Translations under genes and position numbers: made by a program
From: Pohlia nutans
Taxonomy: Eukaryota; Streptophyta; Bryopsida; Bryales; Mniaceae
Length of the DNA: 64,000 bases
Assembly: GCA_022496805.1 (NCBI GenBank)
Contig: CM040090.1
Location: forward strand, 9,790,001 to 9,854,000
Direction: 5' to 3'
Shown: positions 21,591 through 64,000 of the stretch, one piece after another
Layout: the number at the start of each line of letters is the position of its first letter
Position numbering within the stretch: position 1 is the first letter of the stretch
Notes under the pieces: generated by a model
Told to the model about the DNA's origin: nothing
Seen by the model: only the letters and a program-made list of their open reading frames with translations
Database searches by the model: none

Positions 21591-21594
21591 GTTC

Positions 21595-25244: not shown

Positions 25245-25307
25245 GGGAGAGAAAGTGTTATTTTTGAAGAGGTGGATTTTTTCTTTGTATTTTGTGCTAT
25301 TAGTATT

Positions 25308-41710: not shown

Positions 41711-41903
41711 CCCCAGTTTGATGATACTTCTGGATGGTACGTTTGAGCAAGGCAGACGGGTGTGCAGTTCCACATTTTGTAATGCTCCCAGAATGCTTGA
41801 AGAGCATGGAGGTTTTCGTAAATTTACTTTTACTGCTTAAAAAACAGAGATCGATGCTGTGTAACTGATGTTGTATTCGTACACAGATTCGACAGCTTGG
41901 ATC

Positions 41904-44900
41904 ATGGCAGCGCTTATCATGGCAGTACCTATGACTCAAATTGCTTTGTCATTGCTGTATCCATCTTCCGGGTCCTCTCTATCAATCGTGGTAGGCCAAG
42001 GCCTTGGTTGGATGTTGGGTTGGTTGATGCGGCGATTGCTTACAGCCAGGTATGTGTAAAGTTTTAATGAAATGGCCGGTATTCTAGCTGAACATAATGC
42101 TGTTCATTAGATTGTCAGTCTCAACGATTTAAGCTGATTCTCAAAGTTAAAATCGAAACCTGTAGGAGTAGTACCTTCCTTTTTGACAGTAGGAAAACTC
42201 CCAATTTAATGAACTTACATTTCCATAAGACTCTTTTAGTTCAAAATAATCTCTCGCCCCACAAATAGCATTTTGTTTAATTTCTGACTACTTATCAGTG
42301 CTAGCTTTCATACCGTGTAGGAACGCAAGTAATCAAGTAAAGGCACCAAAACCAATTGTGAAGGCTTCCTCTGAGGTAAATGCTCGTAACCTCCCTGAAT
42401 AAGTCAGTCGTTGCACTATGAAACTGTCTTGAATTTTGTTTCATTGTGTTTGCAAATGTTAATACATCATGTTGTTCTGTTCTGGTGTGCATTTACGTAC
42501 TCGGCTTGTAGAGACTGGAAGTGGGATGGAGCTGGAACTGGGAGCTGTGCTTTGTATATTGCCGGCGAGGGAGCTGGTTGTTACTATTACTACTGTTGGT
42601 TTTGCTGTCGCATTGGTCATGGACGCATATGGGGCCAGTTCAAAAGAAATGGTGTCTGGTAGGGGCAACCACAGCCACCCTGTTTGTCACGGTTTTGAAG
42701 CTTCAAGCGAAATGGCGGAAGAGCAAAGAGGCGGACATAGTGTCGCGCAGCAGATACTGGAGGAACTTAATGAGCACAGCCATCACGTACAACGAGTGGA
42801 CTCATGCAGCCAGCATGCTCCACCTCGAGAGGGGTCGCAACGAAGAAGCCCAGCTCTACGACGAAGCCTACGTCCAGGGAAAGCTCCGGGAGCTTCAAGT
42901 GCGGCGCAAGCAAGGCACCACTGACGAGATTCTCTTCTTCTTGCGCGCCGATCTCATTCGACACCTCGGCAACATGTGTAACCCGGACCTTCACAAGCAC
43001 AGGGCTGAAGCTCCAGCGGTCATTCGTGACTACATCAAAGAAGTCAGGTATGTATGTTTAAAACACACTTTCGTTTCTTTTCCAGCAAGGACCTCATGTA
43101 TTCTTTTTTCACCAAGGAGTCGACTAATATGAAAAACTCAATCGATCATAATTATTGTGAATCGTATATTTCAGATGGGACCAAATTTTATATCAGTGAA
43201 AAAAATTGCAAGTGTTGATCGAAACATAAATAAATTTGAACACCAGAGTCCAACTCAAAACTGCTAAACAAGACACGAGGCTTTTTGGTTTGATCAGTTG
43301 TGAATGGGACTATCCTATGTCCAGTTTATTTATTTAATTTCTATCAACACATATAATGTTCTTCACTGATATAGAACTTGGCCCCATTCGAATGTTATAT
43401 TTATAGTTTTCAATCAAAGTAGTCATTTTAGAACCTCGAATGCTTGGTCTTTTAGGAGGTAAGGAACCATTATAACAGTGAACAGTCTCCACTGAAAGTA
43501 TGTTATAGTTGTTTACATTCACTTGGTGTTGAAACGAGCTTGTTGTAATTGCAGAGTCCACCTTCAAGCAGTATGCGAAATGGATGTAGAGGAGTTCACG
43601 CTGGAGGAGAAGCTGACGTTTCTGACTGAGACACGGCAGAGGCTGGGAAGGACGGCTCTGGTGTTCAGTGGGCACGTTGCACTGGGAACGTTTCATTCGT
43701 CGGTGTTTCGGACGCTGGTGGAGCACCAGCTGCTTCCCAGTGTGATAGTGGGCGCCAACTTGGGAGCCATTGTGGCCTCGTTCGCAACCACGAGGACGGC
43801 CTCCGAGCTTCGGCACTTCTTCGATGACCCGTCGCTCCCCATGGACTTCTATGCGAAACTGAGCACCGTGTACGTGGCCGCGTATCGGTTACGCACTCAA
43901 GATGCGATTCAACCGTATGAGATTGAGAAGCTGGAGCAAAGCATGCAGGATCTGTTGGGCGATCTCACCTTTGAAGAGGCGTTTGACTTGTCAGGTGGGT
44001 ACATTCACAATACAATAGAGTTAACCGGAAAGAGTGTCTCAAAGTGGAAACTCTCTTGTTGAACTCACCTTAAACTCGTTTTGAGTTCAAAAAGACTGCA
44101 AAACTAGTCTATGGTGAGTTGGAGAATAATCTGAAGCAAGGCCTGACAGTATCGTGGTGTATGGAACTCATAACCTCCCCAATGCTAAGAGAGATTTCCC
44201 ACAAGGGACTATTCATGAAGGGACCAAGGGACTATTCATGCATAACACTTGTCAGAATCTGTTATTATTGCGATGGAGACTCACCTTACAAGTTAGAAGT
44301 TAGAAATCACAGGTTATGTTTACAGATAACTCTAATGACACACGAAATCTGTGACCAGTGCTTATATTTTACTAAGATTCACTCGAAAAAGCATCCTTTA
44401 CTTTATTAATAGTAACAATATTGTAGGTTAACACAGCCCTATGGTAAGTTTATTGTCCGCTTGTTCTTTTTGGTACATTTGTACTGTCCTTAGATTCCCT
44501 CTAAAACCTACGTAATGTATAGATTTCGTTGCCTAAAAACTCATCAAAAGTTCTTGATTTTGGGCGCCATTGAGTCGTTATACTATGGATGCACCCAGGT
44601 CGCATCTTGGGGATTTCCATTCCTGCTTGCCCTATCGGTCACCAACCGGCCCAGTTTCTGAATTATCTGGCGTCGCCTCATGTTGTTATCTGGAGCGCTG
44701 TTGCCGTGTCTTGTGTGCCTCCCTCTGGACTTCTCCACCGCCCTGAGCTCATGATCAAGGACCGGTTCGACCGCATTGTACCCTACGTTCCACCAACAAA
44801 AGTGAGTAAGAGCATTTTCATATATAAATGTTCATTTTGTTATGTAAGCAAGCTCATCGTTAGAACATCAGGTAGAGGGTAACTACCGTTTGCGTCACTT

Positions 44901-47336
44901 TGAGCATTTGTGATTTTTGGGAGAGATCTGTTAGTACAATCTGAGTCAAGTCTGTTGAGATCAAATTTTTAGTGAATTTCTTAAAGTGCGAGGAACCTTG
45001 TAGATTGCTCTCTGTGACAACAGACAACCTCATTTCCATTCAATTATCAACGGCCATAGACATTTAGCTCACACCACGTGCTAATCAGTCCAACCAAGTG
45101 TATGATTTGAAGAGTTGCTGTCGGTAACGGCTTTCTCATGGTTTTAGTATCCTCTGCCTTAAATTCCAAGGCATCTTAATAAGTGACGTGATTTTAATTG
45201 AGGTAGATTACGTTAGTATAAATTCATGATGTTGATAGCTTTTTGCATGGAATTGTGTGCATGTATTGCGGACGCAGATGAGCTTTGAGAAGGCAAAGAG
45301 CGAAACGAGCTTAGAAACGGAGATCCCCTACCGACAGGTGCGGGAGCTTTTCAGTGTCAACCATTTCATCGTCAGTCAGGCCAGTCCTTACATGGCGCCG
45401 TGGTTGCATTTCAAGGAGTCAATACAAGACCGCTCCTCTCTTGCAGTCAAGGTCAGTAAGAGCCAACCTCCTTTAATTTCAAGGTCTCCTTCCCTGCAAT
45501 GACTATAATCGGAGGATTGCCTTAGCGTAATGGCTCCTTAGTTACTGATTTTGGTCAACTTTGGGTGAAATGATTGGCAGCTTTTGCACTTCATGGAGAT
45601 GGAGGTTAGGCATCGGTGTGCTCAACTGTTAGACATGGGGATCAGGCTGCGAGGTCTTACAAATCTCTGTGCACAGAAGTGGGAAGGTGATATCAACATC
45701 ATCTTGCCAATCACATTTAGTCAGGTGATACATTAATCCTACGATTGCAAGTTGATATGCAATATGAGGATGGCATCATCCATACCTTCGGATTTCCAGG
45801 TAGAGGATACTATTTGCGTCACTTAAAACATTTTAACATATGTAGGAGTGAGCTGTGAAGAGATGTGTTAATAGAGCTGTGAAGAGATGACTTTGCGCAC
45901 ATCATTCAAGAGTCATCCGTTTTTATCAAATTTTTATCGTTCAATGAATTTCTTATGCAATTTCAAAGTGGGAGGTTGTAGACCATTCTAAGAGCCAAGT
46001 TCCATGGGTTTCAGAAGTTGCCCATGGAAGTAGGCAAGAGGAGGGGAAATGTGGAACTTGGGTTTGTCTCATACCCAGCCAATCATGAAGTTGTGCATGT
46101 TCCATGGACTTGAACATGAACAAATTTGATTGCTTAGGGAGAAGTTGCCATGAGGTCTTGGGCTTGAGAATCCTCCATTCTTCATGACAACTTCTCCACC
46201 ACTTTTTTCTCAAAAGCTCACTTGAAATGTGGAACTTGGTCCCCTGAAGTCCCTAAAAACTTGTCTTTTAGTGAGATACTTCACCCATGAAACTTGGCCC
46301 TATGTAGACAATCCCATTTCCATGCAAAGATCAGTGGCCAGAGACACTATGCTCACACCACTTGCTAATAAGTCCATTCAAGTGTATGAATAGTCGAGTT
46401 GCTATTGGTAACAGTGGTCAGTATAGAAGAAGGGAATGATCTTCTACCTCGAGTAATTTGCAACTGTTCAACTTCTTTATTACTTTTTTGCTTGTTGAAC
46501 CTGCACTAACATATCCTAACGGTTGTTATGGAGTGTAGGCCCTCTTGATGTCCAGTGGTACCTTGCATGACGACCATTCACCGAACGAGCTCAGGAAGGC
46601 CGCCATGGCAGGGCGTCGATGCACATGGGCCAAGTTGTCAGCCATTCACACGAGCTGTGGAATAGAGTTGATGCTAGATGAATACATCAACGAGCTCCAC
46701 CGTCAGGAACGTCACGCACTTCACAGGGAGGAGGATGACGGTCACGACCCAGGCACGCATCAATCATCAGAGCTCGAGCCGGGAACGGCAACCGCAACTC
46801 CGGGAGATGGCGATGCAGAGCTTCGATTGGAACAACAAATCACTCCAGGCTACGGCACGCCCAGCGAAGCAGAAACCGAGGATTACTTGCTGGATCACCT
46901 CTGCTCCTGCGCCGGCAACACCAACCGGGAGTCTCGCAGGTGTGATGCCGCCCACACTGTCGCCGACCAAGTTCAGCTCGTGGAAGAATGTGATACCGTG
47001 GAAGATAGCGGAGTGCCATCGCCACTGTTCGGTGACACTGCAGCTTGGTCAGGCGAGCCGCTCCATGATTCTCAACCAGAGCAGGACGGGATGCCGAGTT
47101 CGCCATCGCTTGCTGTGGAGAGCGTCTGTGAACAATATAGACTGGGAGTGCAGAGCCAAGACTTGGAGTGGGACGTAGGCTGTGAGGACAGCCATGGCTC
47201 GCCCACCACGGTGTTACAAGGTCCGCGCCATTTGCGTTCCAGGAAGGTTAGTGACGGAGTCTCGCATCCGGGTTGCAAGCTACAAAGCTATTTTGAGGAA
47301 ATGTCCAACTCTTCTAATCCAGACGATGACATTTAG
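41904..47336 (+). CDS. SDP1-like patatin protein, probable pseudoenzyme
   Basis: Eight exons: 41904-42049, 42321-42375, 42512-43047, 43555-43994, 44599-44801, 45278-45451, 45581-45724, 46539-47336; 2,496 bp, an exact frame of 831 residues. N-terminal hydrophobic helices are followed by the conserved SDP1 block (YWRNLMSTAITYNEWTHAA, RADLIRHLGNMCN) and the patatin domain (GRTALVFSGHVALGTFH; LVEHQLLPSVIVGANLG; NYLASPHVVIWSAVAVSC; ELFSVNHFIVSQA). In plants SDP1 is the oil-body triacylglycerol lipase starting fat mobilisation. Here the nucleophile motif GxSxG reads GANLG (Asn for Ser), and the partner motif DGS aligns with ETS (no Asp). The oxyanion-hole glycines are also altered. I infer loss of lipase activity with the fold retained. 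The C-terminal tail is long and acidic, beyond the usual RRCTWAKLSAI block. Confidence 0.88.
44017..44333. mobile_element. MITE in intron 4 of the first SDP1-like copy
   Basis: A 317-bp insertion flanked by AAT (44,014-44,016 and 44,334-44,336) and missing from the same place in the second copy (near 59,265). The ends are AGAGTTAACCGG and, reversed, AGAGTTATCTG. Part of it (44,017-44,150) is found inverted at 61,240-61,373, inside a related element. Confidence 0.75.
45992..46300. mobile_element. Tourist-like MITE, intron 7 of the first SDP1-like copy
   Basis: About 309 bp beginning GAGCCAAGTTCCATGGG after TAA and ending near CATGAAACTTGGCCC. Clearly the same family as 34,588-34,888. It is shared with the second copy (62,800-63,108), so it was present before the segmental duplication. 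Confidence 0.75.
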
Positions 47337-47959: not shown

Positions 47960-48401
47960 ATGGACGGAAGTTTAAGTTCCGGAGTTCCTGGTGCTGATCC
48001 GTTACCATTGACATGCCTGATCTGCTTCCGCACGCCTACGAACTCTGGCAACGTTCTGCGGTCACTTGTTTTGTTGGCCATGCCTGTACCGATCATGGCC
48101 TCAGGGCTCCATGGAAGACCAAGCAAAGCCATGCCCTATTTGTCAAATGATGTTGATGGAAGGCATCAACGTCATTCCCATCTATGGGAGCGAGCGGCCA
48201 TCGAGAACATCGAGTGATGGAATTGTCGCAAATTCCGACACCAACGATGTCCCACGACGCCCCAATCTGCCACCGCGGATTACTCCTCGAGCTGCGCCTG
48301 CTCGTCCTGTACTTGCGAGAAGCTCCCAGGTACCGGCTCGGTATGTGATCGAGCGCACTCTGGCATTTTCGAAGTTACAGCAAGAAATACAGAAACAATG
48401 A
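47960..48401 (+). pseudogene. RMA-like RING-finger pseudogene
   Basis: Relative of the RING genes in the palindrome. It starts MDGSLSSG and gives the first zinc-binding pair as TCLICFRTPTN. The next part, CGHLFCWPCLYRSWPQ, then PCPICQMML, NVIPIYGSE and DVPRRPN, lies in a different frame. The frame break is at about 48,052-48,057, between the first CxxC and the CGH box, so the RING finger cannot be translated whole. A short undetected intron is not excluded but no splice sites fit. The C-terminal half is Pro/Ala/Arg-rich and ends near 48,401 with FSKLQQEIQKQ. Confidence 0.7.
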
Positions 48402-48790
48402 TAAAAGATGCAATAAGAATGAAATATTCTTCCTCAAAATGAAAATATGATACAAAGACAGTCACAATCTGTACAATAACAGTGTAAAATTCTCACTCAA
48501 AATGAGCATGGATGATTATACAGGCCCCGTGGAAATGATTGTAGGAGAAAAAAATACAACGGATGGGGACAAAGTATTCGAGAGCAGCAAGAAATTCTCT
48601 CTGAAGATGAAGATATGGATGATTATACAGGCCCGGTGGAACCGTGAAGCCCTAATACTACGTGGACTGGTTTGGATCCGAAAATTACATTTCTATGGAA
48701 AGGCATTCATTCATCTTTTGCAGAGGTATCTATTCACCTTTGCCAATTCAGCCACACTGGACAGGTATCTATCTACTTCTGGCTCCAGGT
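48402..48790. other. intergenic with a short direct repeat
   Basis: A phrase of about 25 bp, ATGGATGATTATACAGGCCC followed by (C/G)GTGGAA, occurs at about 48,508 and 48,615. Two AAGAAATTCTC- or AAAATTCTCAC-like phrases lie before them. It would include the 3' UTR of the minus-strand iron permease. No gene. Confidence 0.4.
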
Positions 48791-50278
48791 CTAGTGGAAG
48801 GTCTTGAGATGATCTTGGCCTTGCCGAACCATATCAGCAGCATCGGCTTCCGAGACGGCCCGCTTCCGCTTTACGTAGTTCTTGAGGCCAGGAACCTTGA
48901 GACAGGCATTCATGAGCGGCTTCTTCAGCGGCAGCGAGCCTGTCCGCTCCTCATAGAGCATGCAGATGATGCAGAAGATGATGAAAATCCAGTACACGTT
49001 GTACGCGATGACCGAGCCGTACGTCGCCGAGTTCTGCCAGCCGAGAATCGAATTGAAGATATCCCACCCGTTGGACGTCTCCGGGTTGCAGCAGTTCACG
49101 TGCCAAACGGATTGCGAGATGTCGTACGAGCCCGGCCCACTGCCCGATTCCGCGACATCGCTTCCCACCTTCTGCGCGAATTGGTGGAACTGGATCTTCC
49201 AGACGCCCTTGGAGAACATGCCTGCCGCGATCAGGTAGAGAACGCTTGTCGAGGCGATCAGGAAGAGCTGGATTGAGAGGACGTTTCCTCCGCGGTAGAT
49301 CAAGTAGCCGATGAGTAGACCTGCGAGAATGTTGCAGCGGTTATTTTAGTGGTGACAATGGGACTCAATGTGTATCCAGCTGCTCGTAATTTTCTAACAA
49401 TAGGAGTCAAACATAGTGAAATAGGCATGTACTTCACAAAATCTCTCAAATTCTGCCCGTGCCTGCCCGGAGACCCAAAAAGCTCAGATACCCGTAGAAT
49501 AATTCATATGTGTTGAATTCCCCATGTCAAGAGGAGAGGAGTTGCGAAACATCCGAATACTTATGAATTTAAAGGAAAATGACAAAACATGTGACATCCA
49601 TGTAGACGTGTATTTCAGACTTATGCGACACAGATTTCACATCTGGTTTGACTCCCCCTCATTATTAAGGTTCTAAATTCACCCCCAAAAAGTAAAATAA
49701 ATACCTGCGAGAATGCCCGTGCAGACTGGAAGTGGAAACGCGGTCGCCTTCAGGCCCAGAGACACGCCACCCACAAACACGACGCCCTCAACGCCTTCGC
49801 GCAGCGTGGTGATGAACGGAAGGATGAACATGGCGTATCTTCGCGTCAAGGCGCCCAGCTTGCCGCCGACATTGTGGTGCTTGGCGTTGTCCTTCAGAGA
49901 CTGCGCAATCTTGAGCCTCCATTTCTCCTTGGTCTTGTTGATTCGCAGCAGGGCCAGGCCCATAATGGTGATGATGAAGGTCGCAACGAGGTAGAAGATC
50001 CCCTCCCAGAGATCCTCCGACTTCGCCCAGAGGTTTCTACCCAATCCATAGAAGACCCCGATGAAAACGCCACCGATGATCAGGCACAATGCGATGCCGC
50101 TCAGAGACCCCGCCCACACCTGGCGTCGCAGCCGATTGTAGACCTTCTGGTCTTGGTCGGGCTGGCCCAAGCATTGCCTCAGGAAGGACAACAGCACGGA
50201 GACAATAATGACCGCCTCGAGAACCTCCCGAAAGACAATGAAAAACACCTGCACTGCAAATACGTCTGCCCCTGCCAT
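48791..50278 (-). CDS. FTR1: fungal-type high-affinity iron permease Ftr1
   Basis: Plasma-membrane Fe(III) permease that works as a complex with a Fet3 ferroxidase. Two exons (50278-49705 and 49320-48791) encode 367 residues, close to fungal Ftr1. The start at MAGADVFAVQVFF is chosen because it aligns with the fungal N-terminus; an in-frame Met lies 19 codons upstream (50,335). About seven membrane segments are visible. The two iron-binding R-E-x-x-E motifs are present: FREVLEA in the first helix and LREGVEG in the fourth. SEDLWEGIFYLVAT, the SRRYAMFILPFIT-like stretch (TRRYAMFILPFIT) and VNCCNPETSNGWDIFN match fungal Ftr1 closely. The single intron (49,704-49,321) is bounded by a 13-bp direct repeat. 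The gene is divergent from FET3 with 2.1 kb between, as in fungal FET3/FTR1 clusters. I infer transfer from a fungus; ancient retention is the alternative. Confidence 0.92.
49319..49715 (-). repeat. 13-bp direct repeat bounding the FTR1 intron
   Basis: ACCTGCGAGAATG occurs at 49,319-49,331 and 49,703-49,715 (plus strand), exactly at the two splice junctions. On the coding strand both read CATTCTCGCAG/GT. Splicing removes exactly one repeat unit plus the DNA between (384 bp). This is what an intron created by insertion or tandem duplication around a CAG/GT proto-splice site would look like. Confidence 0.85.
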
Positions 50279-50389
50279 GGTGACTGCAGAACTGAAGTGT
50301 GGGGTGGGACGACTGAAAGATCGCGTGTAAGACAATAATTACCGCCTCCAGACTGAGGACTCTATGAATTGATTCGGGAACCACGGCAC

Positions 50390-50790
50390 GGCCCTCTCCA
50401 CCCGTGAGGAGTCAAGCGCTGCAGCCCACACGCCCAATCTCGTCCGGATCCCCCGGGCTGTCGCTCTCCACCCGCTGGCCCGCGGACTGCACGCGCTGGC
50501 CCGCAGACTGCACGCGCTGGCCGGCAGACTGCACACGCTGGCCCTCGATTCAGCTCTAGAACTGTGGTGGAGCCTTTTACAGCGGCACTCGCCCAGCACG
50601 AGCTCTCCGCCCGGTGGCCCGCGGACTACACACGCCAGCAAGCGCCTCTTGCCTCGATGGATGGCCCCGCGGATTGCACACGCCTGCTCGTGCCTCTCTC
50701 GACTCCATCTGTAGTGGCAGCGTGCTTAGAGCGAGCCCACCGCAAGGCGACGGGTGGAGTGAGGATGCTCTTAGCACAGCTAACCAGCTA
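50390..50790. repeat. GC-rich tandem repeats upstream of FTR1
   Basis: A 21-bp unit of the type CTGGCCCGCGGACTGCACGCG is repeated about three and a half times at 50,474-50,545. Related single units occur near 50,614 and 50,665. The GC content is far above the surroundings. Open frames here are repeat translations. Confidence 0.7.
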
Positions 50791-50840
50791 AGTGGAGTAA
50801 TAATTATCTACGATTTGTGCACTGATATGTGCCGCGATAT

Positions 50841-51058
50841 TTATCTAGGCTCCTTTATCTATATTTGCAATGGGATTTATCTCCCTTGTGCACTGAGAAT
50901 TATCTCTAATTTCTGCACTGATATTTATCTATACCTTCACTGAATTTTATGTTGATCTCTGTATACTGATAACTATCTATGATTTGTGCACTGTCTGCAG
51001 TGAGATTTATCCGCATTTGTGCACTGATAATCATCCGTCTCTGCACTGATATTTATCT
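50841..51058. promoter_or_regulatory. cluster of GATA motifs between FTR1 and FET3
   Basis: Eight GATA sites lie in 218 bp. Six are TTATCT (that is AGATAA on the other strand) at 50,841, 50,855, 50,877, 50,900, 50,925 and 51,053, and two are TGATAA at 50,967 and 51,025. They are embedded in loosely repeated units of the type TGCACTGATATTTATCTATA. In fungi, iron-responsive GATA repressors bind such sites in FTR1/FET3 promoters. The sites here may equally be a by-product of repeat expansion. Confidence 0.45.
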
Positions 51059-51135
51059 ATACCTGTGCACAGATGACTGTCTATATCTGCACTGATGTTT
51101 ATGTACATGTGTGCACTGACAATGATCTATGACGG

Positions 51136-52385
51136 GCTGACTTGATGTTCAGATGAAAGTTCTATTTACAGATTAATTGTTCAAAATTTAAGTTTATTAA
51201 TTTATTTAATGCAGTTACTAAGTTCTTAAACATATTTATATAATGCTTTTTCTCAGCCAACTGCATGTTTTTAAAAGTATTTTTAAAATGAAACACACAA
51301 GCATCTAAATAATATTTTAAAAATTAGTTTACTTGATGAAGGTAAAAATATTATATAAATCAAAACAAATACGACTATGAAATAAATGTGATACTAGAGT
51401 TATTTGTAAAGTCCCTCAAAACTTGAGTTTTTGACCTGTAATTTGGAAAGGACAGGATCAGCATGATCTCACTGTAGACCCATAATAGAACACTGGATAG
51501 ATTGAAATTTTTATTCATAAAAATTTGAAGGGAGGGAGAAGAATTGGGTAGTGGGGTGGGACCGTGAGGAGGAGTGGTGTCAGAATGCTCTGGTCCATGA
51601 AAAAAGGAGGACAAAAGACTGGATGCCTTTACAAATAACTCTGTATCCAGCTCAGACTGTCTGAAACGGAAAGGACAGTAGTTAGGTAGGCATCCGCATC
51701 AAGAGCATTTGCACCAACAAGGGTATTATTTTACTTTTTTAGCAATAATTTTACAGTATCTTTTAAAAACATGGGAGGTGTATGCTCTCACCGCAGCAGC
51801 ATCTAAACAGAGGACAGAAAATTGAAGTAGCAGGTGGCACACCGCAAAAAACGAAACTGACCTTCTCCTCCAAATAATAACGAAACGCTTGGATAAACTT
51901 CGGCCCGTACGATGATTCCGACCTCCTTCCTCTGTTTGCACTTGGTGCTTGTTGGAAAATATCAAAAGCGCCCCTTACACTGCTTGCTAAAATAGAAATC
52001 TGCCTGTGGCCCGTATACTGTAAGCCCGCGAAGCATTTAGAAACGATTTAAGGGCCGGTGGCGGTAGTACGACCTTCTAATTCCATGGTAAAAGAAATTC
52101 CAGCCAGCATGATTCCGCTACCAGCCCGAGCCACCGATGGAGCGCTCGCTGCTCGTCGACAGGGGAATTCGTCGAACGCTTTACTGCCCCGTTCTCGCAA
52201 TCCTCGACGCCGAGTTTGAGCACTAGCGGAGTCAATTTTCTGATCGAACTCGACGTTACTGTTGTTTCTTACACAGAATCTAGGTAGCCCAGCTATCAAC
52301 TAAAGTTGAGAAGCGGTCCCGTAGAAACAAAATCCTAGTCGAATTCGGCGCATTCCAGCGTTTCTCCTCCCGACATCACCACGAG
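51136..52385. promoter_or_regulatory. upstream region of FET3
   Basis: AT-rich to about 51,600, then rising in GC toward the FET3 start at 52,386. It contains no supported gene. It presumably holds the FET3 promoter and 5' leader, and shares the divergent intergenic region with FTR1. Confidence 0.4.
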
Positions 52386-54194
52386 ATGGCGTCGTGGCCT
52401 CGGGGTTCTCTCCTGAGGGCAGTGACCCTGCTGCTGCTCTGCGGGTGGTGCGCGGCGAAGACAGTCACGTACGATTTCAACGTGAGTTGGGTCACCGGCA
52501 ACCCCGATGGCCACACGGAGAGGAAGGTCGTGGGCATAAACGGTCGGTGGCCGCTGCCCGTCATCGAGGTGGACAAGGGCGACCGGTTGGTGGTCAACGT
52601 GCACAACGGGCTGGACCGAAATGCCGCCATCCATTTTCACGGCATGTACCAGAACGGAACCAACTACATGGACGGGGCGAACATGGTCACCCAGTGTCCA
52701 ATTCCGCCGGGAGCGGACTTCACCTACAATTTCACGGTGGCGCAAAACGGGACGTACTGGTACCACTGCCACACCGATTTCTGCTACCCGGATGGCTATC
52801 GCCAGGCCCTGCTCGTCCACGACACCAACGCGTATTTCCAGAATCAGTACGACGAGGAGATGGTCGTGACCGTAAGCGACTGGTACCACGAGCTGGTCGA
52901 GGGCATCGCGCCGCACTTCTTGTCGCTGTACAACCCTACCGGTGCGGAGCCGATTCCCAACGCCTTCCTGTTCAACGACACGCAGAACGTAAGTATTCCG
53001 GTCAAGCCGAACACGACATACTTGCTGAGGCTTCTCAACATCGGAGCATTTGTGTCACAATACTTTTACATTGAAGACCACAAGTTCACCATCGTGGAGG
53101 TCGATGGCGTGTACACGGAGCCGACCGAAGCGGATTTGCTCTACATTGCGGCTGCTCAGCGGTACGCGGTACTCCTTACGACTAAGAACTCGACAGAGCA
53201 GAATTATAAGATTGTCACTGTGGCAGACTCGGAGCTTCTCGACGGGATTCCATCTCAATTGCAGCTGAATAACACCAATTGGTTGGAGTACAACGCAGCC
53301 GCACCACACGACCAAGCAGAGATGACTGTCGCCACGTCCTCGGATCTCGTTCCCTTCGATGACTTCTCGCTTGTCCCACACGACCGAATGCCGCTGCTGC
53401 CGGATCCGGACTACGAGATCACCGTGGACGTGAACATGGAAATCTTGAAGGATGGCAAGGGCTATGCTCTCCTAAACAACATCAGCTACACGACGCCCAA
53501 AGTGCCTACTATCTTTTCCGTCTTGTCGGCCGGCAATTTGTCCACCAATGCCAAGGTCTACGGGGACTACACGCACTCGTTCGTCCTCAATCACAATGAT
53601 GTTGTCCAGATCGTTCTCAACAACAACGATGGGGGCTCTCACCCTTTCCATCTGCACGGGCACAACTTCCAAGTCCTCGAGCGAGTTCCTTCCTACGGAG
53701 AGCACTTCTACGACTACGCAGACAGCGACCCCCTGCCATTTGATCCCAGCAATCACACCGCTTTCCGTGCCGTCCCAATGAGAAGAGACGTCGTGGTGCT
53801 CCCACCAGGAGGTTACTACGTCATCCGCTTCGTAGCAGACAACCCTGGCGTGTGGTTTTTCCACTGCCACATCGACTGGCATTTGTCGCAAGGGCTTGGA
53901 ATGCTCCTGATCGAAGCTCCCACACAAATGCAAGAAATTTATGGATCCGCAGCCATCCCCAAGGACCACTACGACGTATGCCGGGCCGCAGATGTGCCGT
54001 TCGTTGGCAACGCAGCTGGCAACACGATGGACTTCCTCAACCTGGCTGGCGAAGACAAGCAGCAGCCGTTTCTCCCGAGTGGTTTCACTACCCGTGGTGT
54101 TGTGGCTCTCGTCTTGTCATGCGTGAATGGTTTCCTAGGTGTGAGTTTCATCGCCCTCTACGGCTTGACTGACCCTACCTTCCGCTCGAAGTGA
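52386..54194 (+). CDS. FET3: Fet3-type multicopper ferroxidase
   Basis: A single intronless frame of 602 residues, close to fungal Fet3. The enzyme oxidises Fe(II) to Fe(III) on the cell surface with four copper ions and passes the iron to Ftr1. A signal peptide (residues about 7-24) precedes three cupredoxin domains. The copper ligands are present: HFHG (about 80), WYHCHTD (about 125), HPFHLHGH (about 420) and FFHCHIDWHL near the end. The GAEPIP Glu, known in yeast Fet3 as an iron-binding/electron-transfer residue, is kept (YNPTGAEPIPNAF), and FDPSNHTAF sits where Fet3 has its second acidic site. A C-terminal membrane helix (GVVALVLSCVNGFLGVSFIA) is placed as in fungal Fet3. Plant laccases lack this anchor. 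Coding GC is visibly higher than in neighbouring genes. The lack of introns beside intron-rich plant genes supports horizontal acquisition. Confidence 0.94.
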   Translation: MASWPRGSLLRAVTLLLLCGWCAAKTVTYDFNVSWVTGNPDGHTERKVVGINGRWPLPVIEVDKGDRLVVNVHNGLDRNAAIHFHGMYQNGTNYMDGANMVTQCPIPPGADFTYNFTVAQNGTYWYHCHTDFCYPDGYRQALLVHDTNAYFQNQYDEEMVVTVSDWYHELVEGIAPHFLSLYNPTGAEPIPNAFLFNDTQNVSIPVKPNTTYLLRLLNIGAFVSQYFYIEDHKFTIVEVDGVYTEPTEADLLYIAAAQRYAVLLTTKNSTEQNYKIVTVADSELLDGIPSQLQLNNTNWLEYNAAAPHDQAEMTVATSSDLVPFDDFSLVPHDRMPLLPDPDYEITVDVNMEILKDGKGYALLNNISYTTPKVPTIFSVLSAGNLSTNAKVYGDYTHSFVLNHNDVVQIVLNNNDGGSHPFHLHGHNFQVLERVPSYGEHFYDYADSDPLPFDPSNHTAFRAVPMRRDVVVLPPGGYYVIRFVADNPGVWFFHCHIDWHLSQGLGMLLIEAPTQMQEIYGSAAIPKDHYDVCRAADVPFVGNAAGNTMDFLNLAGEDKQQPFLPSGFTTRGVVALVLSCVNGFLGVSFIALYGLTDPTFRSK

Positions 54195-54998
54195 TTGTAG
54201 TAGTAGTTTTATCAGGATAGCACATAAACCCACAATTTCTTCGTTTCATCGCTTACAACTTGAGTGATCCTAACTTCGGCGTGAAGTGCTTGTATCATTT
54301 TAATCATACGTTGCTATCTTTATTGCCTGTTGTACATGTGATGTTATTCCTCGTCCAAATACACTATCTGAAATGGGACCAACTTCGTGCATCCTAGCAG
54401 AAGAGTCAGGCCGAAGAGGAGTGCGAGCATCGATGCACTGTTGATTATGCGGTAGTGCATTTCTATAGAGTCTCCCTTCTGAACACGCATCCTGAATTTT
54501 CGAATATATTTAGGGGTTTGCTAGATTTAGGGTTATAAAAAGAGTGAAAAAAATTCATGTAATTCTTTACATCAAAAGTCGACCTGCAAAGGCACATGAT
54601 GATGCAGATCACCTTGGAGAAGTGCTGCCCAATGTGTTTATATAACACGTGTTGCTTGAAATTCTACTCCTCTCTAAATTGCACAGTTGAGAATTCAAAT
54701 ACACTACACAAGCGTTTCAGACAACCTTCTCATTCCAACACTTCCCTCGTCACTTTGCCATTCATGTGTTACGGAGTAATGCAGAGGTTCACAATCCTCT
54801 GGTCAACTCCAAGTGAGTACAAAAAGGATCTATAACGGACTTCGTAAATTTTTATGAATATCCCCTTTCATCACAGTCTTGTTGATTGATGTGAACCAAT
54901 GGGTGTGAACTATATAAATGTTAACTAGCCAAAGAGTGTATGATGAAGGCCTTTTAGAATTGTCATAGAACAGAAGAATGCATAGAATTAGGAGGGCT
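54195..54998. other. intergenic, 3' of FET3
   Basis: Contains the 3' UTR of FET3. A phrase near 54,330-54,390 (GTGATGTTATTCC, GGGACCAACTTC) loosely resembles the repeat in intron 3 of the SDP1-like genes. No supported gene. Confidence 0.35.
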
Positions 54999-56409: not shown

Positions 56410-58597
56410 AAGAAATTTATTGTTACATCAAATGATGCTGATGTCGAAGCACAAGCCCCAATAGACTCGATCGACCCTAGGACTAACGTTACACAGAGAA
56501 GCTGTATATGCAAGGTGGGAAGGTGAGACAGGGAAATAAAGTACAAATCCCCTGCGTGATGATGACAGGGGCTTGCATACAGTTTCCCTGCTGTTCTCAT
56601 TCTTACCCCAGAGATCGAGGAATTGAATCCTATAAATTCCCTGTGAGCTGATTTCTACACTGACTTTAACGTAAGGAGATTGCAAATAACCAACTCGAGT
56701 GAATGGATGGTACGTTTGAGCAAGGCAGAAGGGTGTGCAGTTCCACATTTTTTAATGCTCCCGGAATGCTTGAAGAGCATGGAGGTTTTCGTAAATTTAC
56801 TTCTACTGCTTAAAAATACAGAGATCGATGCTGTGTAACTGATGTTGTATTTGTACACAGATTCGACAGCTTGGATCATGGCAGCGCTTATCATGGCAGT
56901 ACCTATGACTCAAATTGCATTGTCATTGCTGTATCCATCTTCCGGATCCTCTCTATCAATCGTGGTAGGTCAAGGCCTTGGTTGGATGCTGGGTTGGTTG
57001 ATGCGGCGATTGCTTACAGCCAGGTATGTGTAAAGTTTTAATGACATGGCCAGTACTCATGCTGTTCATTAGATTGCCAGTCTCAACGATTCAAGCTGAT
57101 TCTCAAAGTTAAAATCGAAATCTGTAGAGGTAGTACCTTTTTGACAGTAGGAAAACTCCCAATTTAATGAACTTACATTTCCACAAGACTCTTTTAGTTC
57201 AAAATAATCTCTCGCCCCACAAATAGCATAATTTTGTTTAATTTCTGACTACTTATCAGCGCTAGCTTTCATACCGTGTAGGAACGCAAGTAATCAAGTA
57301 AAGGCACCAAAACCAATTGAGAAGGCTTCCTCTGAGGTAAATGCTCGTAACCTCCCTGAATAAGTCAGTCGTTGCACTATGAAACTGTCTTGAATTTTGT
57401 TTCATTGTGTTTGCAAATGTACGTTAATACATCATGTTGTTCTGTTCTGGTGTGCATTTACGTACTCGGCTTGTAGAGACTGGAAGTGGGATGGAGCTGG
57501 AACTGGGAGCTGTGCTTTGTATATTGCCGGCGAGGGAGCTGGTTGTTACTATTAGCACTGTTGGTTTTGCTGTCGCATTGGTCATGGACACACATGGGGC
57601 CAGTTCAAAAGAAATGGTGTCTGGTAGGGGCAACCACAGCCATCCTGTTTGTCACGGTTTTGAAGCTTCAAGCGAAATGGCGGAAGAGCAAAGAGGCGGA
57701 CATAGTGTCGCGCAGCAGATACTGGAGGAACTTAATGAGCACAGCCATCACGTACAACGAGTGGACTCATGCAGCCAGCATGCTCCACCTCGAGAGGGGT
57801 CGAAACGAAGAAGCCCAGCTCTACGACGAAGCCTACGTCCAGGGAAAGCTCCGGGAGCTTCAAGTGCGGCGCAAGCAAGGCACCACTGACGAGATTCTCT
57901 TCTTCTTGCGCGCCGATCTCATTCGGCACCTGGGCAACATGTGTAACCCGGAACTTCACAAGCACAGGGCCGAAGCTCCAGCGGTCATTCGTGACCACAT
58001 CAAAAAGTCAGGTATGTTTATTTAAAACACACTTTCGTTTCTTTTCCACGAAGGACCTCATGTGTTCTTTTTTCACCAAGGAGTTGACCTTGATTTTAAA
58101 ATGAAAAACTCAATTGATCATATTGTGAAACGTACACTTCAGATGGGACCAAATTTTATATCAGTGTTGATCGAAACATAAATAAATTTGTATAACGAGA
58201 AGTCCAACTCAAAACTGCTAAACAAAACATGAGACTTTTTGGTTTGATCAGTTGTGAATGGGACTATCCTATGTCCAGTTTATTGATTTAATTTCTATCA
58301 ACACATACAATGTTCTTCACTGATATAAAACTTGGCCCCCATTTGAATGTTATATATATGTATTTTTCAATCAAAGTAGTCATTTTAGAACCACGAATCC
58401 TTGGTCTATTAGGGGTTAAGGAACCGTGCAACAGTGAACAGTCTCCACTGAAACTATGTTATAGTTGTTTACATAATTCACTTGGAGTTGAAATTCATGA
58501 GCTTGTTGTGATTGCAGAGTCCACCTTCAAGCAGTATGCGAAATGGATGTAGAGGAGTTCACGCTGGAGGAGAAGCTGACGTTTTTGACTGAGACAC

Positions 58598-58872
58598 CAC
58601 TAGGAGCTTAAAGTGGATTCCCTGTGTGTTTCCGTGTGTATTCCCTCTATGAATTTCATTACACAGGGAACTTGTAAAGAGTCCACAGGAAAGAACAAAG
58701 ACACACAGGGAATATTGAGACACACAGGGAAAACTGAGTATTCCCTGTGTCTCATTTTTCCCTGTGTGTCTCAGTTTTCCCTGTGTGTCTTTGTTCTTCC
58801 CCTTTGTCTTTTTACAAATTCCCTGTGTATGTAGGGAAAACGTCACAGGGAATCGCATATGAGACCCTGGTG
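58598..58872. mobile_element. CACTA-type MITE in exon 4
   Basis: A 275-bp insertion. It starts CACTAGGAGC and ends CCCTGGTG (reversed CACCAGGG), and is flanked by the 3-bp duplication CAC (58,595-58,597 and 58,873-58,875); the uninterrupted sequence is seen in the first copy at 43,629. CACTA ends plus a 3-bp target duplication are the mark of En/Spm-type elements. Inside, the phrase TTCCCTGTGTGTCTCA and its complement recur about eight times, as subterminal repeats do in this group. Confidence 0.85.
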
Positions 58873-59351
58873 CACGGCAGAGGCTGGGAAGGACAGCTCT
58901 GGTGTTCAGTGGGCACGTTGCACTGGGAACGTTTCATTCGTCGGTGTTTCGGACGCTGGTGGAGCACCAGCTGCTTCCCAGTGTGATAGTGGGCGCCAAC
59001 TTGGGAGCCATTGTGGCCTCGTTTGCAACCACGAGGACGGCCTCCGAGCTCCGGCACTTCTTCGACGACCCGTCGCTCCCCATGGACTTCTATGCGAAAC
59101 TGAGCACCGTGTACGTGGCCGCGTATCGGTTACGCACGCAAGATGCGATTCAACCGTATGAGATTGAGAAGCTGGAGCAAAGCATGCTTGATCTGTTGGG
59201 CGACCTCACCTTTGAAGAGGCGATTGACTTGTCAGGTGGGTACATTCACAATTCACTGACACACGAAAACTGTGACCAGTGCTTATATTTTACTAAGATT
59301 CACTCAAAAAGCATTTTTTACTTTATTAATAGTAACAATTTTGTAGATTAA

Positions 59352-60554
59352 CCCCTAACCCCTAAAGGACCAGAGTGTTTTTCCTCCAAAAACATTCCAA
59401 TGCTGCCATTTTTACTCCCCCATGCAAAAAATCCAAAAGAATGTTATTTTTTACCTTCTAACCACAAGATCTTGTCCTAAACTATTTGAAAAACATACAC
59501 AACAAATTTCGTTGATTTTGACCGCACGGATTGCAAGATAATTGCGTTTGATGGAAAAAAACACCCCAAAAAAACACATGCCCGAAAATTTCAGATGCGT
59601 TTGACCACATCTACATCAAAAAAACCTCACTACCAAAACTTGTCGCACTTCACTTTCACATTCTATATGATGTTACTTAGTTGTGTACCAATTTTCGTTG
59701 CGTTTGGAGATGTTTAGGATGTTGAATAACACCTTGCACTTGTTGGGGGTTTAAAAGTTCAGAAAAGACTATATGTTTTTGGAATTGCAATGTTTTCGAC
59801 TTTCTTTATTTAAAATACAAATCCGAGCGGTGAAACACAAGTACATTCCACCCTCTACAAAATGGCGAAAAAAAATTTGAAAAAAAAATAAATCTCCAAG
59901 TTTTAGAAGACATGTAGCACATTTTCTAAGAATTTTGGGGGTTAGGGGGGAAATAAAGGGTGGTTGAAGTGCCAACCCATTCCAATGTTCATGACCCCAC
60001 TAACTCTCAAGGTACACTGCCACGTGGCAGTCCCCCATTGGACGATTTTTATTTTTTATTTTTTATTTTTAAAAATGATTTTATTTTTCAAGTTTTTAAA
60101 TAATATTTTTAATTATGAAATTGAACTTTCAGTTTAAAATAATATTTTTAATTTAAAATAATACTTTTCAGTTTAAAATAATATTTTTTAATTTTAAAAA
60201 ATTAATTTTAATTTTAAAAAATATTATTTTAAAAAAGAATTATGAGTTTGGGAAACGGGGTGGTCTTCTGCCCCCCACAGTCCACCCCATTTTCCACACA
60301 CCGCCCATCTTGTTGCCCCCCCCTAAAATTCAACTATTTCTCTATTGCCCCGCTGCCCTTTCTCCCGAAAAAAACACATTTCTCCTCATAACTTTCACAT
60401 ACGGTGTCGGAATTCAAAAAAAAAGAATCCCCATTTTCATGGCACATTGGGGAATCTACTATTAAATTTCCTTCAAAATTCGATTAAAAATGTGTTCACC
60501 GGAACCTACCCGATTCTCTAAATGTCCTAGTTAGGACACTTGGTCCTTTAGGGG
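59352..60554. mobile_element. TTAA-flanked inverted-repeat element in intron 4
   Basis: A 1,203-bp non-coding insertion flanked by TTAA (59,348-59,351 and 60,555-60,558). The empty site in the first copy (near 44,427) has a single TTAA. The left end is CCCCTAACCCCTAAAGGACCA and the right end reversed is CCCCTAAAGGACCA, so the left has an extra CCCCTAA unit. A TTAA target with CCC ends is piggyBac-like. The interior is AT-rich with (TAATATTTTTAATTT)-like repeats near 60,040-60,240 and no transposase. Confidence 0.85.
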
Positions 60555-60699
60555 TTAACACAGCCCTATGGTAAGTTTTTATTGTCCATTTGTTTTTTTT
60601 GGTAAATATATATTGTCCTTAGATTCCCTCTAAAAGCTACATTATTTATATATTTCATTGCCTAAGCACTCACCAAGACTTCTTAATTTTGGGGTCATT

Positions 60700-61373
60700 A
60701 GGGTAATCCAAAAGCAAAACTAGTTTTCAAGTGGAGTTCAAGTGGAGTTCTCTACTTATAATTATAATTTCTGAGAATTATTGTTCATGAATAGTTTCCA
60801 TGGTCGGGGCTCTTGGCTTGGGGGAACGTGTGAGAACTCTCCTCTAGCATTGGGGAGGTCTCGAGTTCCACACCTCGTGATGGTGCAGGTGTTAGATTTA
60901 AGAAAGATAATGTGCACAGAAGGTAAACAATAAACAAAGTTTATTGATATGTGACTTGCCACCCAACCATAGAAGTGAGATATTGTCCTATAGACAAAGA
61001 TATCTCCTTCACCCACCAAGCCACACTTATAGTTCTAGTACCATCTGTCTACAGACCTAGAATATGTACAGACTAACTAGACTATCACTTTGGTGTTCTA
61101 ACTAACTTGGAATTATAGACTCTTGGTCTATCAGTTCCCTCATAAGTAACTTAATTACCATATGAGTAACTTAGGCATAGACCCTTGGTCTATCAGTTCC
61201 CTCATGAGTAACTTAATTACCACATGAGTAACTTAATTCCAACAGCAGGGCCTTGCTTTAGATTATTTTCCAACTCACTATAGACTAGTTTTGTAGTCCA
61301 TTTAAACTCAAAACGAGTTTAAGGTGAGTTTAAGGTTTCTTTCCGCTTTGAGACACTCTTTTCGGTTAACTCT
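60700..61373. mobile_element. MITE related to 44,017-44,333, in intron 4
   Basis: A 674-bp insertion flanked by ATT (60,697-60,699 and 61,374-61,376); the first copy has the empty site CCATTGAG near 44,570. The ends are AGGGTAATCCAAAAG and, reversed, AGAGTTAACCGAAAAG. The right 130 bp is the reverse complement of the element at 44,017. An internal phrase (TCTATCAGTTCCCTCAT(A/G)AGT) is duplicated near 61,128 and 61,188. Confidence 0.8.
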
Positions 61374-62799
61374 ATTGAGTCGTAATTTTGTGAATGCACC
61401 AAGGTCGCATCTTGGGGATTTCCATTCCTGCTTGCCCTATCGGTCACCAACCGGCCCAGTTTCTGAATTATCTGGTGTCGCCACACGTTGTTATCTGGAG
61501 CGCTGTTGCCGTGTCTTGTGTGCCTCCCTCTGGACTTCTCCACCGCCCTGAGCTCATGATCAAGGACCGGTTCGACCGCATTGTACCTTACGTTCCACCA
61601 ACAAAAGTGAGTAAGAGCATCTATATATATAAATGCACATTTTGTTATGTAAGCAAGCTCATCGTCAGAACATCGGGTAGAGGGTAACTACGGTTTGCGT
61701 CACTTTGAGCATTTGTGATTTTTGCGAGAGATCTGTTAGTACAAGAGTCAAGACTGTTGAGATCAAATTTTTAGTGAATTTCTTAAAGTGCGAGGAACCT
61801 TGTAGATTGCTCTCTGTGACAACAGACAACCTCACTTTCATTCAATTATCAGTGGCCATAGACATTTAGCTTACACCATGTGCTAATCAGTCCAACCAAG
61901 TATATGATTTGATGAGTTGCTGTCGGTAACGGGTTTCTCATGGTTTTAGTATCCTCTGCCTTAAATTCCAAGGCATCTTAATAAGTCACGTGATTTTAAT
62001 TGAGGTAGATTACGTTAGTATAAATGCATGATGCTGACAGCCTTTTGCATGGAATTGTGTGCATGTATTGCGGACGCAGATGAGCTTTGAGAAGGCAAGA
62101 AGCGAAACGAGCTTAGAAACGGAGATCCCCTACCGACAGGTGCGGGAGCTTTTCAGTGTCAACCATTTCATCGTCAGTCAGGCCAGTCCTTACATGGCGC
62201 CGTGGTTGCATTTCAAGGAGTCAATACAAGACCGCTCCTCTCTTGCAGCCAAGGTCAGTAAGAGCCAACCTCCTTTAATTTCAAGGTCTCCTTCCCTGCA
62301 ATGACTATAATCGGAGGATTGCCTTAGCGTAATGGCTCCTTAGTTACTGATTTTGGTCAACTTTGGGTGAAATGATTGGCAGCTTTTGCACTTCATGGAG
62401 ATGGAGGTTAGGCATCGGTGTGCTCAACTGTTAGATATGGGGATCAGGCTGCGAGGTCTTACAAATCTCTGTGCACAGAAGTGGGAAGGTGATATCAACA
62501 TCATCTTGCCAATCACATTTTGTCAGGTGATACATTAATCCTACGATTGCAGGTTGATATGCAATATGAGGATGGCATCAGTTCATCCATACCTTCGAAT
62601 TTCCAGGTAGAGGATACTATTTGCGTCACTTCAAACATTTTAACATATGTAGGAGTGATTCGTGGGAGATGTGTTAATAGAGCTGTGCAGAGATCACTTT
62701 GCGTACATCATTCAAGAGTCAAATCTGTTTTTGATCAAATTTTTATCGCTCTATGAATTTCTTATGCAATTTCAAAGTGGGAGTTGTAGACCATTCTAA

Positions 62800-63108
62800 G
62801 AGCCAAGTTCCATGGGTTTCAGAAGTTGCCCATGGAAGTAGGCAAGAGGAGGAGAAAAGTGGAACTGGGGTTTGTCTCATACCCGGCCAATCATGAAATT
62901 GTGCATGTTCCATGGACTTGAACATGAACAAATTTGATTGCTTAGGGAGAAGTTGCCATGAGCTCTTGGGCTTGAGAACCCTCCATACTTCATGACAACT
63001 TTTGCACCACTTTTTTTCTCAAAAGCTCACTTGAACTGTGGATCTTGGTCCCCAAAGTCACTAAAAACTTGTCTTTTAGTGAGATACTTCACCCATGAAA
63101 CTTGGCCC
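62800..63108. mobile_element. Tourist-like MITE, intron 7 of the second SDP1-like copy
   Basis: Paralogous to 45,992-46,300 and of the same family as 34,588-34,888. It begins GAGCCAAGTTCCATGGG after TAA and ends near CTTGGCCC. Confidence 0.75.
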
Positions 63109-64000
63109 TATGTAGACAATCCATTTCCAAGCAAAGATACCATGCTCACACCACTTGCTAATAAGTCTATTCAAGTGTATGAATAGACGAGTTGCTGTTG
63201 GTAACAGTGATCAGTATAGAAGAAGGGAATGATCTTCTACCTCGAGTGATTTGCAACTGTTCAACTTCTCTAATTACTGTTTTGCTTGTTGAGCCTGCAC
63301 TAACATATCCTAACGGTTGTTATGGAGTGTAGGCCCTCTTGATGTCCAATGGTACCTTGAATGACGACCATTCACCGAACGAGCTCAGGAAGGCCGCCAT
63401 GGCAGGGCATCGATGCACATGGGCCAACTTGTCAGCCATTCACACGAGCTGTGGAATAGAGCTGATGTTAGATGAATACATCAACGAGCTCCACCGTCAG
63501 GAACGTCACGCACTTCACAAGGAGGAGGATTACGGTCACGACTCAGGCACGCATCAATCATCAGAGCTCGAGCCGGGAACGGCAACCACAACTCCGGGAG
63601 ATGGCGATTCAGAGCTTCCACTGGAACAACAAATCACTCCAGGCTACGGCACGCCCAGCGAAGTAAAAACCGAGGATTACTTGCTGGATCACCTCTGCTC
63701 CTGCGCCGGCAACACCAACCGGGAGTCTCGCAGGTGTGATGCCGCCCACACTGTCGCCGACCAAGTTCAGCTTGTGGAAGAATGTGATACCGTGGAAGAT
63801 AGCGGCGTGCCATCCTCACTGTTCGGTGACACTGCAGCTTGGTCAGGCGAGCCGCTCCATGATTCTCAACCAGAGCAGGACGGGATGCCGAGTTCCCCAT
63901 CGCTTGCTATGGAGAGCGTCTGTGAACAATACAGACTGGGAGTGCAGAGCCAAGACTTGGAGTGGGACGTAGGCTATGAGGACAGCCATGGCTCGCCCAC

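What the first reader, a model, noticed from the sequence alone, without database searches (positions are those of the whole stretch)
48791..54194. Complete fungal-type Fet3/Ftr1 reductive iron-uptake pair in a plant genome
A fungal-type ferric permease (both R-E-x-x-E motifs, the VNCCNPE...NGWDIFN block) and a fungal-type membrane-anchored ferroxidase (all copper ligands, the GAEPIP Glu, a C-terminal helix) lie side by side and divergent, as in fungal iron clusters. The flanking genes are plant genes rich in introns; these two have one intron and none. Land plants are known to use FRO/IRT1 or phytosiderophores, and Chlamydomonas uses FOX1/FTR1 with an animal-like oxidase, so a Fet3-like partner is unexpected. 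Inference: the two-gene module was acquired as a unit from a fungus and integrated between duplicated lipase-like genes.
Basis: partly seen in the sequence, partly recalled or inferred. Interest (0 to 1): 0.92.

Follow-up and report, generated by a model that had tools for sequence, protein, structure and literature searches.

The report
Fungal iron-uptake gene pair in moss
A moss genome carries, side by side, the two genes that fungi use together to pull iron into their cells; they appear to have been captured from a fungus, which is an unusual case of a plant taking in a working two-part machine.

Summary
Observation confirmed. An intact FET3-type ferroxidase (52386-54194, +, 602 aa, no intron) lies divergent from an intact FTR1 permease (48791-50278, -, 367 aa, one 384-bp intron). 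The flanks are moss: the adjacent tandem SDP1-like lipase groups with Ceratodon and Sphagnum (100/100). After the leafy liverwort Calypogeia fissa (82%, 81%), the nearest named relatives are ascomycetes, mainly Leotiomycetes. In fungi the genes are usually linked, so joint capture is the simplest reading. Tested copper, iron and REXXE residues are kept, and changes avoid conserved sites. Liverwort and moss copies share derived features (FET3 tail lost; FTR1 Lys177 where 78 of 78 presumed fungal rows have Pro). The FTR1 intron is bounded by a 13-bp direct repeat, as after an insertion. Whether moss and liverwort took the genes independently, exchanged them, or the liverwort record is partly fungal is unresolved. 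A fungal-type iron permease transcript was already noted in Physcomitrella in 2005 (PMC1079823); the FET3 partner, the pairing and the tree evidence go beyond that. Iron uptake is inferred. The whole-genome search did not complete (16 tries), so copy number and the sequence beyond 64 kb are untested.

The parts
48791..49320 (-). FTR1 exon 2 (C-terminal half, NCCNPE block, stop)
   Evidence: (PF03239 1.4e-21)
49321..49704 (-). FTR1 intron, 384 bp, GT-AG, GC 0.40
   Evidence: splicing restores the GILAGLLIGYLIYRGGN that homologues have uninterrupted
49319..49331 (+). 13-bp direct repeat copy 1 (ACCTGCGAGAATG) at the exon 2 end of the intron
49703..49715 (+). 13-bp direct repeat copy 2 at the exon 1 end of the intron; preceded on + by an A-rich stretch
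49705..50278 (-). FTR1 exon 1 (start codon, both REXXE motifs)
   Evidence: (PF03239 9.2e-42)
50279..52385 (.). 2.1-kb shared upstream region of the divergent pair, with 21-bp and 46-bp tandem repeats
   Evidence: no iron-regulatory motif established
52386..54194 (+). FET3-type multicopper ferroxidase, intronless, 602 aa, N-terminal signal/anchor helix and C-terminal TM helix, no cytosolic tail
41731..47333 (+). Flanking SDP1-like (patatin/DUF3336) triacylglycerol-lipase gene, copy 1; moss
56704..64000 (+). Tandem copy 2 of the SDP1-like gene, runs off the window end

Best explanation
A moss acquired, from an ascomycete fungus in or near the Leotiomycetes, a linked FET3-FTR1 pair that encodes the ferroxidase and the permease of high-affinity reductive iron uptake, and has kept both genes intact. 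Shown: intact genes, moss flanks, fungal-nested trees, conserved active sites. Inferred: joint transfer of the pair. Also inferred is the working mechanism: a plant ferric reductase supplies Fe2+; the membrane-anchored oxidase, loaded with copper in the secretory pathway, oxidises it to Fe3+ outside the cell using O2; and the Fe3+ is handed straight to the FTR1 channel through its REXXE and D-x-x-E acidic residues. In fungi neither protein does this alone (recalled), so two adjacent divergent genes form a self-contained module that can work in a new host at once. After capture, FTR1 seems to have gained an intron by an insertion with target-site duplication; the FET3 cytosolic tail was lost, in the plants or already in the donor.
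For: Homologue lists: after Calypogeia, every listed hit that carries an organism name is an ascomycete genus (class placement checked for four of them; the rest from knowledge), for FTR1 (120 listed of 2136) and FET3 (120 of 4090). Trees: window + Calypogeia clade at 100/98 (FTR1, which also holds metagenome protein P0015) and 100/99 (FET3), inside clades of 21 rows (97/92) and 12 rows (100/93) made up otherwise of named fungi or unnamed rows. A concatenated tree with 28 presumed fungal pairs gives 100/100 and 100/91. Holding 21 Leotiomycete-clade FET3 rows together without the plants is rejected, p-AU 0.018 (the group was named after seeing the tree). Moss flanks: SDP1-like gene with Ceratodon 100/100. 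Constraint: at 161 FET3 columns invariant in 63 presumed fungal rows the window has 1 residue unseen in them; at 87 FTR1 columns (78 rows), 1. Fet3p active-site residues conserved. AlphaFold model pTM 0.80, top PDB match 1zpu, TM 0.82. P0122, a Logan contig, encodes the same protein with 3 changes counted by eye. A fungal-type high-affinity iron permease among Physcomitrella transcripts (PMC1079823 passages) shows that a moss can express such a gene.
Against: FTR1 alone does not reject the plants lying just outside the 18-row fungal clade (p-AU 0.42), nor does the concatenated tree (p-AU 0.25); the donor class is therefore less certain than the donor kingdom, and a MAG labelled Icmadophila (Lecanoromycetes) sits in the donor group. 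In Calypogeia the genes appear to be on different contigs (20.2 and 3.8 Mb). The window branch is long (0.39, 0.36). Two of Fet3p's four loop acidic residues thought to feed Ftr1 (D312, D315; recalled) are not aligned to acidic residues here. The Physcomitrella permease of PMC1079823 was read by its authors as more likely retained than transferred; how it relates to this one was not tested. No expression data, read coverage or whole-genome search was available.
Confidence: 0.89

Rival explanations
1. Single capture by a bryophyte followed by bryophyte-to-bryophyte transfer: moss and liverwort copies share one plant ancestor, as proposed for the moss NAS gene lineages HypNAS and PolNAS.
For: Exclusive sister grouping in FET3 and the concatenation, and in FTR1 together with P0015. 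The FET3 tail is lost in 3 of 66 rows, exactly the window, P0122 and Calypogeia, the others having at least 12 further residues. FTR1 Lys177 is shared where 78 of 78 presumed fungal rows have Pro, and 4 FET3 residues are shared that are absent from 63 presumed fungal rows. Precedent: PMC12454661, section 6 read.
Against: A donor fungus that already had these traits would give the same pattern; Calypogeia's short branches (0.07, 0.09) look less like an old plant-resident gene; P0015, of unknown host, also has Lys177.
Confidence: 0.31
2. Two independent transfers, one to a moss and one to a liverwort, from closely related bryophyte-associated fungi.
For: Mosses took NAS genes from microbes at least three times (PMC12454661 section 6). 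Calypogeia fissa is recorded with Ascomycota symbionts, and Hyaloscypha ericae is the ascomycete symbiont of liverworts (PMC7062687 passages).
Against: No named fungus separates the two plants; separating Calypogeia from the window in FET3 is rejected, p-AU 5.5e-5, though for FTR1 it is not, p-AU 0.20.
Confidence: 0.32
3. The Calypogeia records are from a fungal symbiont sequenced with the plant, so only the moss has a true transfer and the 'liverwort' sequences mark the donor lineage.
For: Short branches; Calypogeia hosts ascomycetes; a FET3 contig of 3.8 Mb could be fungal.
Against: FTR1 lies on a 20.2-Mb contig, large for such a fungus (recalled) and like the 15.9-Mb contig of Calypogeia's SDP1; the two genes seem unlinked, unlike in fungi; the tail is lost as in the moss.
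Confidence: 0.25
4. Vertical descent from an ancestor of mosses and liverworts with loss in most lineages.
For: Presence in a moss and a liverwort; a fungal-type iron permease transcript in Physcomitrella (PMC1079823 passages).
Against: Both proteins nest within Ascomycota in these trees; no other plant is named among the 120 listed hits of either search (capped lists) although Ceratodon, Sphagnum, Marchantia and Riccia proteins are in the same database. Age argument recalled: the fungal donor group is younger than the moss-liverwort split. Odds raised from 0.04 to 0.07 because.
Confidence: 0.07
5. Assembly chimera or contamination in the window.
For: Read coverage could not be seen; whole-genome search did not complete.
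Against: No N runs; a 384-bp, 40% GC intron, long for ascomycetes (recalled) and ordinary for a moss (Physcomitrella mean 252 bp, PMC1079823); an independent Logan contig encodes FET3 with 3 changes, though without visible flanks; the closest listed non-plant rows are 80% (FTR1, unnamed) and 77% (FET3) identical.
Confidence: 0.04

Closest known systems
Fungal Fet3p-Ftr1p reductive iron-uptake complex (yeast Fet3p, PDB 1zpu; filamentous-fungal pairs)
   Same: Sequence, fold, copper and iron residues, REXXE motifs, membrane anchor, gene linkage
   Different: Resides in a moss genome; FTR1 has a repeat-flanked intron; FET3 lacks the cytosolic tail; two loop acidic residues not conserved. Gene orientation in the fungi was not checked
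Fungal-type high-affinity iron permease transcript PPP_184_C1 of Physcomitrella (PMC1079823, passages)
   Same: An FTR1-type permease in a moss with matches only among fungi
   Different: Reported as one line of a table from 2004 databases and read as a candidate for transfer or, more likely, a retained gene; no FET3 partner ('ferroxidase' absent from the text); its relation to the present gene was not tested
Horizontally acquired NAS genes of mosses (PMC12454661)
   Same: Microbial, mostly fungal, metal-handling gene taken up by mosses, flanked by plant genes, some with introns (section 6 read)
   Different: NAS is one gene for a metallophore; here two linked genes that make one uptake complex. 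'FTR1', 'ferroxidase' and 'permease' do not occur in that main text
LPR1-type ferroxidase of land plants (PMC9168544)
   Same: Three-domain multicopper ferroxidase gained by plants from microbes (passages)
   Different: LPR1 is bacterial-type (CotA-like), 17% identical to Fet3p by that paper; the present protein is fungal Fet3-type
Chlamydomonas FOX1/FTR1 (recalled; a PMC9168544 passage places Fox1 with 6-domain oxidases)
   Same: Ferroxidase plus FTR1 permease strategy
   Different: FOX1 is a 6-domain oxidase; not tested here by tree

Membership tests
FET3-type ferroxidase | Three cupredoxin domains with all T1/T2/T3 copper ligands | tested here: met
   (11 of 11 tested Cu-site residues)
FET3-type ferroxidase | Fe2+-site residues E185, D283, Y354, D409 (numbers recalled) | tested here: met
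   E188, D286, Y360, D415
FET3-type ferroxidase | C-terminal transmembrane anchor | tested here: met
   hydrophobic 566-595, helix 569-595
FET3-type ferroxidase | Acidic loop feeding Ftr1 (D312, D315, D319, D320; recalled) | tested here: inconclusive
   2 of 4 aligned acidic (D325, D326)
FET3-type ferroxidase | Ferroxidase activity | not testable with these tools
   needs enzyme assay
FTR1 permease | PF03239 over the length, two REXXE motifs | tested here: met
FTR1 permease | Acidic D-x-x-E in the exofacial loop (role recalled) | tested here: met
   D246 and E249 invariant in 81 rows
FTR1 permease | Seven membrane helices | tested here: inconclusive
   hydropathy shows about seven stretches, several overlapping; not modelled
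Fungus-to-plant horizontal transfer | Plant sequences nested in fungi | tested here: met
   for FET3 p-AU 0.018; FTR1 and the concatenation not decisive within the donor group (p-AU 0.42, 0.25)
Fungus-to-plant horizontal transfer | Continuity with plant flanks in single reads | not testable with these tools
   assembly is continuous, reads not held
Fungus-to-plant horizontal transfer | Plant (moss) genes on both sides | tested here: met
   copy 1 by search and tree; copy 2 by DNA identity to copy 1

The most novel reading that the evidence does not exclude
A complete two-gene fungal iron-uptake module was captured once by a bryophyte from a bryophyte-associated leotiomycete and then passed between a moss and a leafy liverwort, losing its cytosolic FET3 tail and gaining an intron from a retroposon whose target-site duplication supplied both splice sites. 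That would give some land plants a reductive ferroxidase/permease route of iron uptake obtained from the fungi they live with.
Probability: 0.24. Interest if true: 0.87.

Novelty: new variant of a known kind. Interest (0 to 1): 0.73.

Why it matters
The fungal gene captures by mosses that I saw described in print are single genes or gene families (NAS, KP4, HET); a 2020 paper on fungi-derived genomic regions in mosses was seen only as a reference and may include multi-gene stretches. Here both partners of one uptake complex seem to have arrived and survived together, so the case tests whether gene linkage in the donor makes multi-part functions transferable between kingdoms. It would give a land plant an iron-uptake route thought to be fungal, possibly drawn from the fungi that colonise bryophytes, and it can be tested in culture. 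The repeat-flanked intron is a candidate example of intron birth inside a foreign gene.

Tried and rejected
Window is a liverwort: held after because Calypogeia was the best named hit, dropped after the SDP1-like flank proved moss. Vertical descent and contamination: see rivals. Chance match: excluded by the scores. Foreign base composition as evidence: third-position GC is 0.78 and 0.735 for the pair against 0.643 for SDP1-like exons and 0.447 for one sucrose-synthase exon; too variable to use. Regulatory motifs in the 2.1-kb shared upstream region: no CACGTG, no ATCWGATAA, 11 HGATAR sites on the two strands, not tested against chance. The intron has no other copy in the window beyond short matches. 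Literature: 10 of 10 paper searches; by titles and abstract starts none reports FET3/FTR1 transfer to a moss or liverwort. One listed paper (PMC1079823, listed) turned out, when its passages were read, to note a fungal-type iron permease in Physcomitrella; interest and odds were lowered a little for it. The library holds open-licence papers only.
Full report
What is there. The window holds a divergent gene pair. FTR1 is on the minus strand: exon 1 50278-49705, a GT-AG intron of 384 bp, exon 2 49320-48791, 367 residues. FET3 is on the plus strand: 52386-54194, 602 residues, no intron. Pfam recognises both. FET3's best solved relative by sequence is yeast Fet3p, 578 bits against 235 for the next protein, a laccase. 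An AlphaFold model (mean pLDDT 78.5, pTM 0.80) matches the Fet3p crystal structure best, TM 0.82 over the query.

Integrity. The 11 tested copper-site residues and Fet3p's iron residues E185, D283, Y354 and D409 are present (roles and numbers recalled). FTR1 has R17-E-x-x-E21, R160-E-x-x-E164, and D246/E249. Of Fet3p's four loop acidic residues, two are not acidic here. In FET3, 161 columns are invariant in 63 presumed fungal rows, and the window shows an unseen residue at 1; in 67 columns with no majority it does so at 4. In FTR1 (78 rows) the figures are 1 of 87 and 3 of 47. Changes thus avoid constrained sites, as under purifying selection. dN/dS could not be computed because relatives were available as proteins only. 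Neither reading frame is broken.

The host. The pair lies between two tandem copies of an SDP1-like (patatin, DUF3336) triacylglycerol lipase gene, which match in blocks at 41731-47206 and 56704-64000. Joined exons of copy 1 hit Ceratodon purpureus best (64% over 98%), then a Logan contig, then Sphagnum; Calypogeia reaches 46%. In a 20-row tree the gene sits with Ceratodon and the Logan row at 100/100, inside a clade that otherwise holds three Sphagnum rows and one JGI row. So the window is a moss, most likely Bryopsida. The species is not determined. Sucrose synthase exons lie at the left end.

The donor. In both protein searches the first named relative is Calypogeia fissa, a leafy liverwort (82%, 81%); the other named rows in each list of 120 are ascomycete genera (the lists are capped, 120 of 2136 and 120 of 4090). 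FTR1 tree (81 rows): window, Calypogeia and P0015 form a clade (100/98) inside a 21-row clade (97/92) with Mollisiaceae, Hyaloscypha, Xylogone and Icmadophila. FET3 tree (66 rows): window, P0122 (same species by 3 changes) and Calypogeia (100/99) inside a 12-row clade (100/93) with Oidiodendron. A concatenated tree with 28 presumed fungal pairs agrees. Oidiodendron, Xylogone and Hyaloscypha are Leotiomycetes; Icmadophila is a Lecanoromycete. Against a precise placement: FTR1 (p-AU 0.42) and the concatenation (0.25) do not exclude the plants lying just outside the fungal subclade, whereas FET3 does (0.018). The kingdom of the donor is firm; the class is probable.

Joint transfer. With the same sister and same donor group in both trees, capture of the pair in one step is the simplest account. 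Orientation in the fungi was not checked.

The liverwort. Calypogeia's FTR1 is on a 20.2-Mb contig and FET3 on a 3.8-Mb contig, so they seem unlinked there. Moss and liverwort share derived traits. FET3 stops right after its membrane helix in 3 of 66 rows, these being the window, P0122 and Calypogeia, while the other 63 have at least 12 more residues. FTR1 has Lys177 against Pro in 78 of 78 presumed fungal rows, and P0015 has it too. Calypogeia fissa is listed with Ascomycota symbionts, and Hyaloscypha ericae is the ascomycete symbiont of liverworts (PMC7062687, passages). This suggests a route for transfer. It also raises the possibility that the liverwort records are symbiont DNA. I cannot choose between transfer between bryophytes, two transfers from related fungi, and symbiont sequence.

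The intron. On the plus strand ACCTGCGAGAATG stands at 49319-49331 and again at 49703-49715, exactly 384 bases apart. The second copy follows an A-rich stretch. Read on the coding strand, each repeat contains the AG|GT that is used as a splice junction. This is what an insertion with target-site duplication, for instance of a retroposon, would leave. It is an inference: fungal gene structures and the rest of the genome could not be examined.

Mechanism and novelty. The likely function is reductive iron uptake by a plasma-membrane oxidase-permease complex, using the plant's own ferric reductase and copper loading (known biochemistry, recalled). Mosses have repeatedly gained fungal or bacterial NAS genes (PMC12454661, section 6 read), and KP4 and HET genes are cited as fungal in mosses (PMC11228847, passages). 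[quoted passage not shown] So a fungal-type FTR1 in a moss is not wholly new. I found no report of FET3, of the linked pair, or of a tree-supported transfer of either gene to a bryophyte in ten searches of the held open library (listed in Tried and rejected); subscription papers were not searched. No Physcomitrella protein is named in the top 120, so its permease is either less similar, absent from the list, or unnamed; this was not resolved. I rate the finding a new variant of a known kind: a linked pair that makes one complex rather than a single gene.

Noticed in passing
window 49319-49331 and 49703-49715: 13-bp direct repeat at both borders of the FTR1 intron, with an A-rich stretch before the second copy on the + strand: looks like intron gain by an insertion with target-site duplication.
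   Followed up: partly
window 41731-47206 and 56704-64000: Tandem duplication of the SDP1-like gene; if the unit is 41731-56703 it includes the FTR1/FET3 pair, so a second pair may lie just beyond 64 kb.
   Followed up: partly
P0015 (metagenome protein): A third member of the moss-liverwort FTR1 clade with Lys177, but with Cys in place of the first REXXE Arg; host unknown.
   Followed up: partly
window 12927-13894 and 14011-14978: Inverted duplication at 99.3% identity of a RING-finger gene; another RING-like ORF lies at 48021-48398 beside FTR1.
   Followed up: no
window 16027-25631: LINE-like retroelement remains on the minus strand: RNase H domain at 16027-17088; reverse-transcriptase-looking ORFs by eye only.
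   Followed up: no
window 50469-50544 and 50994-51130: 21-bp and 46-bp tandem repeats in the shared upstream region of the pair.
   Followed up: no
P0122 (Logan contig, 4479 bases): Encodes the window FET3 with 3 amino-acid changes: another individual of the species or a second copy of the gene.
   Followed up: partly
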